A stretch of DNA of 64,000 nt from Tsukamurella sp. TY48 (lineage in GTDB: Bacteria > Actinomycetota > Actinomycetes > Mycobacteriales > Mycobacteriaceae), in contig NZ_BPMV01000001.1 of NCBI RefSeq assembly GCF_019656655.1, forward strand, positions 868,001 through 932,000. Direction: 5' to 3'. The translations under genes and the position numbers were made by a program. Positions within the stretch are counted from its first letter, which is position 1; every line of letters starts with the position of its first letter. The notes beneath the pieces are model-generated. The model had not been told where the DNA came from. It made no database searches and saw only the letters and a program-made list of their open reading frames with translations. Positions 30,434-35,410 of the stretch are shown piece by piece.

Positions 30434-31969
30434 CTAGCTGCTGACGGCGTCCTGATCCTTGCGCAGGTGCACGGGCGTCGCGAAGCACATCACGGCGATG
30501 AAACCGAAGATCAGCGCCGTGGCGGGCAGGTAGATGCTGTTGCCCATCGCATCCGCGAACGGCCCCTTGAGGAAGTCCGGCAGCGGTCCCACCGAGGTGC
30601 TCAGCGCGTCCTGTGACGGCGCCTGACCCGGCGGGAACGCCGGGGTCAGCTTGGCCTGCAACTGGTTCTGCATGAGCACGCCCACGGCGGCGCTGCCCAG
30701 CACGGCACCCACCTGGCGGGTCATGTTGTACACACCCGATCCGGCACCGGCGAGCGGCAGCGGCAGGTTGCGGTTCGCGGTGGTGGCGAGCGGCCCCCAG
30801 ATGAAGGCATTGCCCACGCCCATGAGGGCGATGGGCGCCAGAATCCCCACCACCGGCGTGGTCGGCGAGGCCACCGCACCGAGCCAGAACAGGGCGATCG
30901 AGTTCGAGGCGAAGCCGAAGCCCGCGAGGTAGCGGGGGTGCACCTGGTCGATCAGCTTGCCGGACAAGGGCGCCAGGCCGCCGGAGATCACGGCGAGCGG
31001 GATCAGCAGCAGCGCCGAGCGGGTGGGAGTGAGTCCCATCGACTTCTGCGCGAACAGCATGAGCGGGATCGACATGCCCGTCACCGAGAATCCCATGGTG
31101 GCGATCGCGACGTTGGCGAGCGAGAAGTTGCGGTCCTTGAACAGCGTGAGCGACATCAGCGGCTCGGGCGCCTTGGTCTGCCACCACACGAACACCACCA
31201 ACAGCACCACACCCGAGATGATCAGGGTCCACACGCCGATCGGCACCGGGCCGAGGTGCCAGATGGTGCCCCAGTCGTACTTCTGTCCCTCCTGGAGGCC
31301 GAAGGTGAGCAGGAACAGGCCCGCGGCGCTCAGCACGATGCCGGGGATGTCGAGCCGGTGCTTGTGCGTGGGCAGCGAGGGCACGAGCCGCATCGCCAGT
31401 ACGAAGGCGATCACGCCCACGGGCACGTTGACGAAGAACACCCACTCCCAGCCGAGGCGGTCCACCAGGACGCCGCCGGCCAGCGGCCCGACGAGGATCG
31501 CGACGCCCGCCACCGAGCCCCACAGCGCCATCGCGCTGCCGCGCTTGTCCGCCGGGAAGGTGCGGGTGATCACGGCCATCGTCTGCGGCGTCATCAGGGC
31601 GGCGCCGAAGCCCTGCACCACGCGGGCCGCGATCAGCATTCCGGCGGTGCCGGACAGGCCGCACCACGCCGAGGCGGCGGTGAAGATCACCAGGCCGATC
31701 AGGTAGAGGTTCTTGGGCCCGTACATGTCGCCGAGCCGTCCGGCCAGCAGCAGCGGCACCACGTAGGCCAGGAGGTAGGCGCTGGTCACCCAGACCACGC
31801 TGTTGAGATCGGTTCCGAGCCCCACCATGATCGAGTCGGTGGCCACCGAGACGATGGTGGAGTCCACCAGGATCATGAAGAAGCCGATGACCATGGCCCA
31901 CAGCGCGGGCCACGGACGGTAGTTCGCGGGGAGTCCGCCGCCGGCGGGGCGGTCGTCAGTCGTCGTCAC
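30434..31969 (-). CDS. MFS drug transporter, DHA2 (EmrB/QacA) family
   Basis: This 511-residue proton-coupled exporter with 14 predicted transmembrane helices has motif D1-like DSTIVSVATDSI in helix 1, GRLGDMYGPKNLYLIG (motif A) in loop 2-3 and motif C-like GPLAGGVLVDRLGWEWVFFV. The start is GTG at 31969, overlapping the upstream PadR gene by 14 nt, so both are on one transcript and the exporter is under PadR control. Substrates are probably lipophilic cations or drugs, by family. Confidence 0.9.
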   Translation of the reverse strand: MTTTDDRPAGGGLPANYRPWPALWAMVIGFFMILVDSTIVSVATDSIMVGLGTDLNSVVWVTSAYLLAYVVPLLLAGRLGDMYGPKNLYLIGLVIFTAASAWCGLSGTAGMLIAARVVQGFGAALMTPQTMAVITRTFPADKRGSAMALWGSVAGVAILVGPLAGGVLVDRLGWEWVFFVNVPVGVIAFVLAMRLVPSLPTHKHRLDIPGIVLSAAGLFLLTFGLQEGQKYDWGTIWHLGPVPIGVWTLIISGVVLLVVFVWWQTKAPEPLMSLTLFKDRNFSLANVAIATMGFSVTGMSIPLMLFAQKSMGLTPTRSALLLIPLAVISGGLAPLSGKLIDQVHPRYLAGFGFASNSIALFWLGAVASPTTPVVGILAPIALMGVGNAFIWGPLATTANRNLPLPLAGAGSGVYNMTRQVGAVLGSAAVGVLMQNQLQAKLTPAFPPGQAPSQDALSTSVGPLPDFLKGPFADAMGNSIYLPATALIFGFIAVMCFATPVHLRKDQDAVSS

Positions 31970-32537
31970 AGGAGACCTTCCATTCCAGGGTTCCGTTGTT
32001 CAGCCGGTCGAGCAGGCCGCGCAGCCAGGCCGCCTCGGCCTCCGCCATCGCGGCGAGGTAGTCGATGTCGAGCAGGTGCGCCTGCGCCACATGGGTCGTG
32101 GCGCGGGCGTGGCCGGACCGCAGTGCGGCGGCCCGGCTCTCGGTCTGATGCAGGCGCGCGCCGAGCAGGTCCACCACGAGGTCGCGGTCCAGGCGGTGCG
32201 CCTCGGCGAGGGCGAGCGGGAACTGCGGGTACTCCTCGGCCGGCCGGGCCAGTAGGTCGACCACGGTGGCCTGCAAGCGGTCCCGGCCCTCGGGCGAGAT
32301 CGTGTAGGTGGTGCGCTCGGGACGGTTGCCCTCGCGATCGACGCCCTGGGCGGACACCAGTCCGTCGTCCGCGAGGCGGTTCACGGTGTGGTACAGCGAT
32401 CCGGCCCGGAGCTTGACCACCAGGTCCTCGTGCCGCTGCACCATCGTGGTGAACATCTCGTAGGGATGCATATCCCGCTCGGTGAGCAGGGCCAGAGCCG
32501 CCACTGCCAGGGGCGTCAGGGGCCGATTCCGCGCCAT
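31956..32537 (-). CDS. PadR-family transcriptional regulator
   Basis: This 193-residue regulator has an N-terminal winged helix (LAVAALALLTERDMHPYEM, then KLRAGSLYHTVNRLADDGLV and the wing RPERTTYTISPEGRDRL) and a C-terminal helical dimerisation region (about 100-185) of the Vir/PadR-C2 type. It lies upstream of and overlaps an MFS exporter gene, the classic arrangement in which a drug releases PadR from the operator. The ATG at 32537 follows an excellent GGAGGTGG site. An inverted repeat covers its -35 region (32584-32606). Confidence 0.9.
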   Translation of the reverse strand: MARNRPLTPLAVAALALLTERDMHPYEMFTTMVQRHEDLVVKLRAGSLYHTVNRLADDGLVSAQGVDREGNRPERTTYTISPEGRDRLQATVVDLLARPAEEYPQFPLALAEAHRLDRDLVVDLLGARLHQTESRAAALRSGHARATTHVAQAHLLDIDYLAAMAEAEAAWLRGLLDRLNNGTLEWKVSCDDD

Positions 32538-32566
32538 CTTCCACCTCCCATCCGCGACCGCCGGCA

Positions 32567-32613
32567 ACGCTACGCCACGATTACTCCAAGTGGAATATTT
32601 GGAGTGGAATTAC
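32567..32613 (-). promoter_or_regulatory. PadR-MFS promoter with inverted- and direct-repeat operator
   Basis: The minus-strand -10 is TAGCGT (32572-32567). The -35 region is overlapped by a perfect inverted repeat ACTCCAA-N9-TTGGAGT (32584-32606). On top of it, GTGGAAT is directly repeated at 32591-32597 and 32605-32611. This placement predicts autorepression by the PadR protein encoded immediately downstream. Confidence 0.65.
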
Positions 32614-32696: not shown

Positions 32697-33584
32697 CTAG
32701 ATCTGCGCGATGTCGGTGACCCGCCAGGCCCGGGCGGGCGACGGCGACTTCCCGCAGGACGCCGTCCGCGGCTCGAGTTCGGTGGCCGCCACGGCGACCC
32801 GCCACGCGCGTCCGTCGGTGTGGTGCACCGTCGCGATACCGCTCGCCGCACCGTGCTTCGGCACGGGCCCGGTCTCGACGGTGACCCGGAGCGCGTCCGG
32901 ATCGCACGGCGGGATCGACTCCCGCACCGCGACCTCGGCGACCTGACCGACGGACGGGGTCGAGGAGCGGCCGCGCAGCCCCACCGTCGAGACGGTGCCG
33001 GCGCGCGCGGCATCGAAGACCTCCTGCGCCTCGCCGGCGGACAACCGCCCGTAGGTGTAGCCGGTGGGCAGCACGATCAGCACCGGGGCGAAGCGGTGAC
33101 CGCCGGTGTGCGAGCACTCCCACACCACGGGATCGGGATAGTGCGCGGCGAGTTCGGCCGCCAGGGGGCGGCCGCGCACCGCGCAGCACACGTCCCGCTT
33201 GCCGTTCGTGCACACCAATGCGATCGGCTCCGCCGGCGCGCCGGCGGCGGGATCGTCCACTGCCAGCGCGGGGATCTGCGCGTCGTCGTCGATCACGAAG
33301 GCGCGCAAGGAGGTCCGTCCCGCCTCGCTCCGGGCCACGAACACCCGGCGCGGGCCGCGGGGCCCGTCGGCGCGGCCGGGACGGCGGATCAGCAGGACGC
33401 GCAGGCCGCGCTCCTCCGCGAATCGCTCGATGGCGGCACCGATCTCCGGCGCGAAGGTCTCGCCCGAGAACGGGTCCCGCCCCCAGCCCGCATTGTTCTC
33501 GATGCACAGCCAGCCCGGTTCCTGCGTCGCCGTACCGGGCAGCGGTTCGTCGACGAAGTCCGAGCAGCGAGGAGTCTGGTGCAT
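32697..33584 (-). CDS. Sucrase/ferredoxin-like family protein
   Basis: This 295-residue protein has the family's paired cysteine/histidine motifs: CSDFVDEPLPGTA at the N-terminus, CTNGKRDVCCAVRGRPLA (about residues 124-141) and CSHTGGHRFAPV (about 156-167). The central part is a thioredoxin-like [2Fe-2S] ferredoxin fold. The family is named after a plant sucrase-like protein, but no hydrolase activity is implied; redox function is more likely. The ATG at 33584 is preceded by TACAAT at 6 nt (leaderless). It is divergent from an MFS exporter, with both promoters inside one MarR-like operator. Confidence 0.85.
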   Translation of the reverse strand: MHQTPRCSDFVDEPLPGTATQEPGWLCIENNAGWGRDPFSGETFAPEIGAAIERFAEERGLRVLLIRRPGRADGPRGPRRVFVARSEAGRTSLRAFVIDDDAQIPALAVDDPAAGAPAEPIALVCTNGKRDVCCAVRGRPLAAELAAHYPDPVVWECSHTGGHRFAPVLIVLPTGYTYGRLSAGEAQEVFDAARAGTVSTVGLRGRSSTPSVGQVAEVAVRESIPPCDPDALRVTVETGPVPKHGAASGIATVHHTDGRAWRVAVAATELEPRTASCGKSPSPARAWRVTDIAQI

Positions 33585-33590
33585 GAATCA

Positions 33591-33623
33591 ATTGTATGTT
33601 TACAATCATTGTGTGTCTACAAC
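33591..33623. promoter_or_regulatory. Shared MarR-type operator containing two divergent leaderless promoters
   Basis: The perfect palindrome ATTGTA-TGTT-TACAAT (33591-33606) is followed by a near copy ATTGTG-TGTC-TACAAC (33608-33623), 17 bp on. The right arm TACAAT is a -10 box 6 nt before the MFS GTG at 33613. The left arm read on the other strand is an identical TACAAT 6 nt before the ATG at 33584. Binding of one MarR dimer would cover both -10 boxes. Confidence 0.75.
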
Positions 33624-34989
33624 GATCTCGGAGCCGAGGGCCCGGCGCAAGCAGCTGGTCCTGCTCACGTGCAGCCTCAGCCTGCTGATCGTCTCGATGG
33701 ACGCCACGATCGTCAACGTCGCGCTCCCGTCGATCCGCACCGATATGGCGGCCTCGGTCCAGCAGTTGCAGTGGGTGGTGGACGTCTACACCCTCACCCT
33801 CGCCGGCCTGCTGGTACTGGCGGGCGCCGCCGCCGATCGTTTCGGGCGGCGCCGCGTGTTCCGGATCGGCCTGATCGCCTTCGCGGTCGGCTCCCTGCTG
33901 TGCAGCGTCGCGCCCACCGTCGGGGTCCTCATCGCCGCCCGGTTCACCCAGGCCGTCGGCGGCTCCATGCTCAATCCGGTGGCCATGTCGATCATCACCG
34001 CCACCTTCACCGGCCGGGCCGAGCGCGCGCGGGCGATCGGCGTGTGGGGCGCCGTCGTGGGCATCTCCACTGCGCTGGGCCCACTCGTCGGCGGCATCCT
34101 CATCGAATCGCTGGGATGGCGCTCGGTGTTCTGGATCAACCTGCCGATCTGTGCGCTCGCGGTGGTCCTCACCTTCCTCGTGGTCCCCGAGTCGAAGGCG
34201 GCCCGGATCCGGCCCGTCGATCCGTGGGGCCTCGTGCTCGCCGTGGCGGTGGTGTTCACCCTGGTCTTCGGCCTGATCGAGGAGCAACCCCTGGTGTTCC
34301 TCGGCACCGCGGCCGCGCTCGCCGCCTTCGTCCTGCACGAGCGCCGGCACCCGTCCCCGTTCCTGGACCTGCGCTTCTTCCGCAGCATCCCGTTCTCGGC
34401 GGCCACACTCACCGCGGTGTGCGCCTTCGCCGCCTTCGGCGCCTTCCTGTTCACCATGTCGATGTACCTGCAGGAGACGCGGCACCTCTCGGCCGTCCAC
34501 GCGGGCCTGATGTTCCTGCCGATGGCGCTCGCCGTGCTCATCTGCTCGCCGATCTCGGGCCGGCTGGTGGCGAGCTACGGCGCGCGACCCTCGCTGCTCG
34601 GTGCCGGGCTGCTGATGACCACGGGCGCCGTGCTCCTCACCGCGATCCATCCGGACACCCCGCTGCCCCTGATCGCGGTGATCTTCGCGATCTTCGGGAC
34701 CGGCTTCGGCCTGGTGAACGCACCGATCACCAACTCGGCCGTGAACGGCATGCCGCTGGACCGGGCCGGCGCCGCGGCGGCGCTCGCCTCCACCAGCCGC
34801 CAGGTGGGCGTCAGCATCGGCGTGGCCCTGGCGGGCCTGTCCGCCGGCGCTCAGCTCTGGTGGATCGTGGCCGGCACCACGAGCTGCGTGCTCGCACTCG
34901 GCGTGGTCTCCACCGGTCCGGCCGCCGCACGCTCGATCGAGCGCATCGCGCCCCTGCTGGAGGATCGCGAGGGCGCCGATGCCCGCTGA
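33613..34989 (+). CDS. MFS drug transporter, DHA2 family
   Basis: This 458-residue exporter has about 12-14 transmembrane helices, with motif D1 DATIVNVALPSI in helix 1, motif A DRFGRRRVFRIG and motif C-like GPLVGGILIESLGWRSVFWI. GTG at 33613 was chosen because TACAAT lies 6 nt upstream. An in-frame ATG at 33583 would lie upstream of the promoter and overlap the divergent gene's start codon. It overlaps the MarR gene by 11 nt, so exporter and regulator form one operon. Confidence 0.9.
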   Translation: MSTTISEPRARRKQLVLLTCSLSLLIVSMDATIVNVALPSIRTDMAASVQQLQWVVDVYTLTLAGLLVLAGAAADRFGRRRVFRIGLIAFAVGSLLCSVAPTVGVLIAARFTQAVGGSMLNPVAMSIITATFTGRAERARAIGVWGAVVGISTALGPLVGGILIESLGWRSVFWINLPICALAVVLTFLVVPESKAARIRPVDPWGLVLAVAVVFTLVFGLIEEQPLVFLGTAAALAAFVLHERRHPSPFLDLRFFRSIPFSAATLTAVCAFAAFGAFLFTMSMYLQETRHLSAVHAGLMFLPMALAVLICSPISGRLVASYGARPSLLGAGLLMTTGAVLLTAIHPDTPLPLIAVIFAIFGTGFGLVNAPITNSAVNGMPLDRAGAAAALASTSRQVGVSIGVALAGLSAGAQLWWIVAGTTSCVLALGVVSTGPAAARSIERIAPLLEDREGADAR

Positions 34990-35410
34990 ACCCGTCACCC
35001 GGCCCGATCCCGACGAGGTCTGGGGCTCCCTGGTCCGCGTGGCCTTCGACGGCCGCGACGGCTGGCGCCGGGCCGTCGTGGAGCGGACCGGATTGCCGTT
35101 CAGCCGGATCCGCGCGCTCACGCGGCTCGCCAGATCCGGGCCCATGACGCTCAAGCAGCTCGCGCACGCCGCCACGATGGACCCGCCGGCGACCACCGTC
35201 ACCGTCAACGACCTGGAGGAGCGCGGCCTCGTGGTGCGGGACACCGATCCCGCGGACCGCCGCGCGAAGCTGGTGACGCTCACCGATGCGGGCCGCGCCG
35301 TCGTGGCCCTCGTCGCCGATACGCCCGATCCCGCTCCCGCGCCGTTGCGCGAGTTCACGCCCACGGAGTTGGGCGCCCTCGCCGACATGCTTCGCCGCTT
35401 GCAGGAATGA
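34979..35410 (+). CDS. MarR-family transcriptional regulator
   Basis: This 143-residue winged-helix regulator has LTRLARSGPMTLKQLAHAA and PPATTVTVNDLEERGLVV as the helix-turn-helix and recognition helix, and DPADRRAKLVTLTDAGRAV as the beta wing with its conserved DxR. It ends with a short dimerisation helix. It overlaps the upstream MFS gene by 11 nt. By the usual logic of marR-exporter operons it should bind the tandem ATTGTA-N4-TACAAT sites at 33591-33623 and be released by an effector, derepressing both the exporter and the divergent ferredoxin-like gene. Confidence 0.9.
   Translation: MPAEPVTRPDPDEVWGSLVRVAFDGRDGWRRAVVERTGLPFSRIRALTRLARSGPMTLKQLAHAATMDPPATTVTVNDLEERGLVVRDTDPADRRAKLVTLTDAGRAVVALVADTPDPAPAPLREFTPTELGALADMLRRLQE

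What the first reader, a model, noticed from the sequence alone, without database searches (positions are those of the whole stretch)
33583..33623. Divergent leaderless promoters built from the two halves of one palindrome
ATTGTA-TGTT-TACAAT gives a TACAAT -10 box on each strand, and each box is exactly 6 nt from a start codon (ATG 33584 minus, GTG 33613 plus). A near-identical second site follows 17 bp on. One MarR dimer would thus silence two leaderless genes, an exporter and a ferredoxin-like protein, by covering both -10 boxes. The regulator is encoded in the exporter operon. Operator, -10 boxes and transcription starts are compressed into 40 bp.
Basis: partly seen in the sequence, partly recalled or inferred. 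Interest (0 to 1): 0.75.

Follow-up and report, generated by a model that had tools for sequence, protein, structure and literature searches.

The report
One palindrome, two leaderless divergent promoters
In this bacterium a repressor's likely DNA binding site also contains the promoter boxes of two genes that run in opposite directions and seem to start without any leader RNA; the site is old and widely conserved for the exporter gene, while its use by the second gene looks like a recent add-on made when the exporter and its repressor came to lie next to that gene.

Summary
O1 (ATTGTATGTTTACAAT, 33591-33606) gives TACAAT on each strand, 6 nt from a start codon (ATG 33584 minus, GTG 33613 plus). 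O2 (33608-33623, 13/16 identical) contains the GTG. The host is inferred to be a Tsukamurella. The exporter side is well supported by comparison: in 87 of 90 MFS loci a NANNNT box (TANNNT in only 14, mostly CACAAT) lies 6 nt before the start, 7 nt in the other 3; O2 forces rare codons (third-base GC 0.06 at codon 3, 0.89 in the gene body). A strict tandem-operator search found one site in each of 29 of 251 family genomes, control 0; behind it comes the exporter in 21 and the MarR gene in 8. So it is most likely the operator of the MFS-MarR unit. The divergent half is young: 2 of 90 loci. In the 14 other genus genomes Suc_Fer stands apart from MFS-MarR, already with a TANNNT box 6 nt (13) or 7 nt (1) from its ATG. 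The cassette came to lie upstream of it, and the left half-site, TACAAC on the minus strand in 64 of 87 loci, is TACAAT here. MarR binding, start sites and co-repression of Suc_Fer remain inferred.

The parts
33591..33606 (.). Operator O1, ATTGTA-TGTT-TACAAT (core TTGTN6ACAA 33592-33605)
   Evidence: O1 core exact in 69 of 87 aligned MFS loci
33608..33623 (.). Operator O2, ATTGTGTGTCTACAAC, with the MFS start codon inside it (core 33609-33622)
   Evidence: O2 core exact in 46 of 87 loci; start codon in the same register in 29 of 29 tandem-operator loci
33601..33606 (+). -10 box TACAAT of the MFS-MarR operon, right half of O1
   Evidence: NANNNT-N6-start in 87 of 90 MFS loci (first base T in 14), N7 in 3
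33591..33596 (-). -10 box TACAAT of the Suc_Fer-like gene, left half of O1 read on the minus strand
   Evidence: same in sister genome G010; TANNNT-N6-ATG in 15 of 16 genus orthologs
33614..33619 (-). -35-like TAGACA, 17 nt before the minus -10, inside O2
   Evidence: consensus scan only
33613..34989 (+). DHA2-type MFS exporter, predicted leaderless GTG start
   Evidence: PF07690, E 3.9e-65; TIGR00711, 261.1 bits against cut-off 230.2
34979..35410 (+). MarR-family regulator, overlapping the MFS gene end by 11 nt
   Evidence: PF01047, 49.4 bits against cut-off 24.6
32697..33584 (-). Sucrase/ferredoxin-like protein (Suc_Fer), predicted leaderless ATG start
   Evidence: PF06999, 71.6 bits against cut-off 34.9
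33583..33585 (+). Upstream in-frame ATG with a GAGGAG-like stretch before it: rejected alternative MFS start
   Evidence: in G010 the same ATG is followed by AAT TAA

Best explanation
The site is the autoregulatory operator of a portable MFS exporter-MarR repressor operon. Two TTGTN6ACAA palindromes, 17 bp apart, cover the -10 box (O1) and the transcription start plus first codons (O2) of a leaderless mRNA; MarR dimers on them would keep RNA polymerase off until an inducer releases them. In this Tsukamurella and one sister genome the operon lies directly upstream of a formerly separate Suc_Fer-like gene that already had the leaderless spacing, and the left half-site of O1, in most relatives TACAAC on the minus strand, is TACAAT, 6 nt from the Suc_Fer ATG. 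Suc_Fer is therefore most likely transcribed from the same palindrome in the other direction (-10 in O1, -35-like in O2), under the same MarR repression and in mutual exclusion with the exporter promoter. Shown by sequence comparison: the operators, their register with start codons, the conserved spacing, the change of place. Inferred: binding, start sites, repression of both genes, induction by a ligand.
For: NANNNT-N6-RTG in 87 of 90 MFS loci, N7 in the other 3. Tandem operator TTGTN6ACAAN3TTGTN6ACAA in 29 of 251 family genomes, one site each, reversed control 0; behind it MFS in 21 of 29, MarR in 8 of 29 with the MFS after it; start codon at the same place in O2 in 29 of 29. Within the genus 6 of 13 genomes with a close MFS have the exact tandem site, 0 of 3 without one. 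Starts MSTT and MNTT occur in both proteins. Third-base GC 0.126 at codon 2 and 0.057 at codon 3 against 0.886 in the gene body; ACA is 3.9% of Thr codons in the body but stands at codon 3 in 47 of 87. Suc_Fer has TANNNT-N6-ATG in 15 of 16 genus genomes, N7 in 1. In 14 of 14 other genus genomes Suc_Fer lies beside the carboxypeptidase gene with no MFS-MarR between. Window and G010 differ at 3 places from the minus ATG to the end of O2, none in a half-site core or -10 box. In-frame stop two codons before the Suc_Fer ATG.
Against: No transcript or binding data. Only 14 of 87 MFS boxes are strict TANNNT; 70 begin with C. 222 of 251 family genomes lack the exact tandem site, and how many of them carry the gene pair was not counted. 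The outward TACAAT occurs in 4 of 87 loci, and two of these (L124, L157, Mycolicibacterium) have no start codon 4-9 nt away, so it also arises with no gene to serve; start triplets 4-9 nt from the mirrored hexamer are common (33 of 87). The divergent use rests on two sister genomes. The window's plus promoter lacks the TTGCC/TTGAC block of the relatives' consensus. The loci are related, so counts are not independent, and the 79 named loci are the best of a capped list of 80 from 201.
Confidence: 0.75

Rival explanations
1. The exporter starts at the upstream in-frame ATG 33583 with a Shine-Dalgarno-like GAGGAG; O1 and O2 then lie inside its coding sequence and the mRNA has a leader.
For: ATG 33583 is in frame and GAGGAG lies about 9 nt before it.
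Against: In the sister genome the same ATG is followed by AAT TAA. The start at the 33613 position keeps its -10 spacing in 87 of 90 loci.
Confidence: 0.04
2. The exporter side is as described, but Suc_Fer is not meaningfully controlled by MarR: its minus -10 merely fell within O1, and Suc_Fer is transcribed at a housekeeping level or mainly competes with the exporter promoter.
For: Suc_Fer is present in 16 of 16 genus genomes and in 14 of these is not next to MFS-MarR. Its box there is mostly TACGGT, so TACAAT may simply keep up expression.
Against: A repressor on 33591-33606 would cover the whole minus -10; escaping it would need MarR to be mostly off DNA (inference).
Confidence: 0.2
3. The palindromes bind another regulator, for example the neighbouring PadR (31956-32567).
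For: A PadR gene lies about 1 kb away and stays near Suc_Fer in the genus.
Against: The tandem operator goes with the MarR-MFS pair and sits before MarR where MarR is first (8 of 29); no such palindrome stands before Suc_Fer in the other genus genomes (upstream sequences), where PadR is near.
Confidence: 0.04

Closest known systems
Leaderless promoters of mycobacteria (Cortes et al. 2013, PMC3898074; passages seen)
   Same: TANNNT -10 motif centred 7-12 bp upstream of 73% of primary start sites, purine starts preferred, no -35 motif found; a figure legend shows prpD and its divergent regulator both giving leaderless mRNAs and calls closely juxtaposed divergent promoters common.
   Different: In the passages seen the two -10 boxes are not described as halves of one operator palindrome.
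Bidirectional promoters by -10 symmetry (Warman et al. 2026, PMC12825309; passages seen)
   Same: Symmetric DNA lets RNA polymerase bind in two orientations, one excluding the other; an efflux/repressor pair (acrAB/acrR) is an example.
   Different: There start sites lie either side of or within a shared -10 element, most often 18 bp apart, 10 and 23 also common; here the -10 boxes are separate (4-bp gap) and the predicted starts are 29 bp apart.
MarR-type repressors of actinobacteria: Ms6508 MarR (PMC4143341) and CrtR (PMC5401885); passages seen
   Same: MarR regulators encoded with or beside their target, binding an inverted repeat at the promoter; Ms6508 MarR protects -35 to -7 from its start codon; crtR is said to be leaderless and is divergent from its target.
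   Different: Other operator sequences; the passages seen do not describe an operator that includes the start codon or -10 boxes on both strands.

Membership tests
Leaderless actinobacterial promoter | TANNNT box about 6-7 nt before a start codon | tested here: met
   both strands in the window; Suc_Fer 15 of 16 at N6, 1 at N7. In MFS relatives the position is kept (87 of 90 N6, 3 N7) but the first base is T in only 14 of 87
Leaderless actinobacterial promoter | no Shine-Dalgarno before the used start | tested here: met
   by eye only, and the upstream sequences
Leaderless actinobacterial promoter | mRNA 5' end at the start codon | not testable with these tools
   needs 5' end mapping
MarR-autoregulated efflux operon | MarR winged-helix protein encoded with the transporter | tested here: met
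   PF01047 above cut-off; MFS and MarR hits together in 19 of 20 fetched stretches, which were chosen for MarR hits save the one miss, L053
MarR-autoregulated efflux operon | conserved palindrome over the operon promoter | tested here: met
MarR-autoregulated efflux operon | MarR binds it and is released by a ligand | not testable with these tools
   needs gel shift
Bidirectional promoter of the Warman/Grainger type | shared -10 element, start sites about 10, 18 or 23 bp apart | tested here: not met
   -10 boxes disjoint, predicted starts 29 bp apart
DHA2 MFS exporter | TIGR00711 above curated cut-off | tested here: met
   261.1 against 230.2 bits
Suc_Fer-like (PF06999) | Pfam model above gathering score | tested here: met
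   71.6 against 34.9 bits; no solved relative by sequence (two hits, best E 0.39); cluster binding not tested

The most novel reading that the evidence does not exclude
A repressor operator built from -10 boxes is a ready-made second promoter. When a portable exporter-repressor cassette with such an operator comes to lie beside another gene, one substitution in the outward half-site turns it into a leaderless promoter, so the neighbour gains a promoter and a repressor in one step. The same operator dictates the first residues of whatever protein it precedes.
Probability: 0.45. Interest if true: 0.65.

Novelty: new variant of a known kind. Interest (0 to 1): 0.52.

Why it matters
If true, it is a case, placed on a tree of relatives, in which an operator became a promoter for a new neighbour, and it shows DNA-level constraint writing the N-terminus of two unrelated proteins. 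Leaderless genes let operator, promoter and coding start share about 40 bp, which makes promoter capture and the cost of that compression directly testable. It also predicts start codons for an exporter and a regulator in many Mycobacteriales.

Tried and rejected
Upstream MFS start at ATG 33583: rejected by the in-frame TAA in G010. PadR as regulator: unlikely by synteny. Shared -10 bidirectional promoter of the known type: spacing does not fit. Divergent leaderless use in other species: start triplets 4-9 nt from the mirrored hexamer occur in 33 of 87 loci, at exactly 6 nt in four (window, L034, L107, L118), but only the window and L034 combine this with a hexamer ending in T. A heuristic for divergent genes flagged 25 of 87, but missed the known Suc_Fer of L034 and flagged doubtful ones, so I do not use its count. 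Solved-structure searches: Suc_Fer no relative, MarR many distant MarR structures; neither changed the reading. Apd1-like [2Fe-2S] proteins were looked up (listing and abstract starts only) and not used.

Errors of mine: the pattern was mis-spaced by one base and did not match the window itself, so its 0 of 401 is meaningless; one search read some loci on the wrong strand (redone); one search had one query in the wrong frame (redone). Rows dropped before the 90-locus count: L094/L035 (MFS broken across contigs), L046 and L052 (MarR-first order; L052 has TACAAT-N6-ATG before MarR), and unnamed loci that duplicate named ones. The tree used 33 of the 90.

Novelty searches: (open-access PMC library, capped lists, mostly titles and abstract starts seen; one search returned 0 papers) showed no paper whose listing describes this operator. 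That is weak evidence of absence.

Full report
What is there. The window holds, around 33.6 kb, a minus-strand Suc_Fer-like gene (32697-33584), a plus-strand DHA2 MFS exporter (33613-34989) and a MarR gene (34979-35410) that overlaps the exporter by 11 nt. Between the two divergent start codons lie 28 bp. They contain O1, ATTGTATGTTTACAAT (33591-33606), whose halves read TACAAT on either strand, 6 nt from each start codon. O2, ATTGTGTGTCTACAAC (33608-33623), lies 17 bp on, holds the exporter's GTG and runs into its first codons. The coordinates of the finding are right.

Chance. ATTGTN5TACAA with one mismatch allowed has 3 matches in 64 kb, all at these two sites, against 0.14 expected. In the whole genome a single palindrome is unremarkable: TTGTN5TACAA has three places, two of them here, but its reversed control has 7 and 8. 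The tandem form has one site in the own genome with up to 3 mismatches, the reversed control one match. Back-to-back TANNNT-N6-RTG boxes occur once in the window and in 0 of 100 simulated windows.

The exporter promoter is old. I compared 90 MFS loci: the window, 79 of the 80 named loci (itself the best 80 of 201; L094 dropped as broken) and 10 unnamed relatives. In 87 of 90 an in-frame ATG or GTG follows a NANNNT box by exactly 6 nt (CACAAT 62, TACAAT 9, CAAAAT 8, TATAAT 5, AACAAT 3), so the place is kept but strict TANNNT only in 14. In the other three the spacing is 7. By eye there is no Shine-Dalgarno. A TTGCC/TTGAC block stands 18 nt before the -10 in the consensus; the window lacks it, the Suc_Fer start being there. 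The cores TTGTN6ACAA are exact for O1 in 69 of 87, for O2 in 46 of 87, for both in 37 of 87.

O2 is a DNA signal inside the gene. Third-base GC is 0.126 at codon 2, 0.057 at codon 3 and 0.345 at codon 4, against 0.886 from codon 11 on. ACA makes up 3.9% of threonine codons there, but stands at codon 3 in 47 of 87 genes. The genes are related, so these are not independent counts.

The operator goes with the MarR-MFS unit. A strict search for the tandem operator in 251 family genomes gave 29 genomes with one site each; the reversed control gave none. The first gene behind it is the MFS in 21 of 29 and the MarR gene in 8 of 29, in those 8 with the MFS after it; behind the MFS the MarR gene was visible in 7 of 21, the held stretch ending too early in the others. 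In 29 of 29 the start codon lies at the same place in O2. MSTT and MNTT begin members of both protein families, because the operator writes the codons. In the genus, 6 of 13 genomes with a close MFS have the exact tandem site and 0 of 3 without one. The other 222 family genomes lack the exact site; some deviate by a base or two (for example G003, G005) and I did not count how many carry the pair.

The Suc_Fer side is young. Suc_Fer orthologs exist in 16 of 16 genus genomes. In 15 of 16 a TANNNT box lies 6 nt before the ATG, in G007 7 nt, so this gene had the leaderless spacing before. In the 14 genus genomes other than the window's and G010 its neighbour is the carboxypeptidase-like gene that in the window follows MarR, with no MFS-MarR between. 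In the two of these whose MFS-MarR surroundings I compared (G005, G006) the pair lies between a membrane-protein gene and nfeD; in G009 and G015, which have no MFS match at E 1e-100, these two are neighbours. In the window's genome nfeD is on another contig, with no match to the membrane-protein gene within the 1.5 kb held. The MFS tree (33 of 90 loci) puts the window and G010 together (100/100) inside the Tsukamurella clade (100/100). So the unit has changed place as a cassette, and in the ancestor of the window and G010 it came to lie upstream of Suc_Fer; where it came from is not settled.

How the second promoter may have arisen. On the minus strand the left half of O1 reads TACAAC in 64 of 87 loci and TACAAT in 4 of 87: the window, L034 (G010), L124 and L157. 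The last two have no start codon 4-9 nt away. In the two Suc_Fer genomes the ATG stands exactly 6 nt away. One substitution thus separates the common operator half from an outward -10. Between the minus ATG and the end of O2 the window and G010 differ at three places (a spacer base, a centre base of O1 and the first base of the exporter's start codon), none in a half-site core or -10.

Mechanism, with status. Shown by comparison: anatomy, conservation, association with MarR, change of place. Inferred: MarR dimers on O1 and O2 exclude RNA polymerase from both promoters; O1 covers both -10 boxes, O2 covers the exporter's start and a -35-like TAGACA of the Suc_Fer promoter (consensus only); the promoters exclude each other, their predicted starts being 29 bp apart. 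The ligand is unknown.

Comparison. Leaderless divergent pairs are known in M. tuberculosis (PMC3898074, passages). Promoters bidirectional by symmetry are known, with shared -10 elements and starts most often 18, also 10 or 23 bp apart (PMC12825309, passages). MarR operators over promoters are known (PMC4143341 and PMC5401885, passages). The combination here, operator halves as separate -10 boxes for two leaderless genes and a second operator around a start codon, was not in the listings. I therefore rate it a new variant of a known kind.

Noticed in passing
31956-32567 (-) and 30434-31969 (-): A PadR regulator overlaps a second DHA2-type MFS gene by 14 nt; an AT-rich repeat-containing stretch (about 32580-32613) lies upstream and, unlike the finding, a GGAGG-type Shine-Dalgarno precedes its likely ATG.
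   Followed up: no
G000:C2:234491-234504 (inside L053): Only other TTGTN5TACAA place of the genome (TTGTTCTTGTACAA); a further target or, given the control counts, a chance match.
   Followed up: no
L094 (CAJCHX010000469.1), same length as G007:C469: A contig titled Acidobacteriaceae bacterium carries Tsukamurella-like MFS and MarR genes, and G007 is placed in the window's genus: the record title looks wrong.
   Followed up: no
L042 and L038: In two other Tsukamurella the MFS-MarR pair sits between a membrane-protein gene and nfeD, which are neighbours in G009 and G015: a second landing site of the cassette.
   Followed up: partly
33569-33585 (+): A GAGGAG-like stretch and an in-frame ATG inside the Suc_Fer start could mislead gene callers into a false leadered exporter start.
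   Followed up: yes
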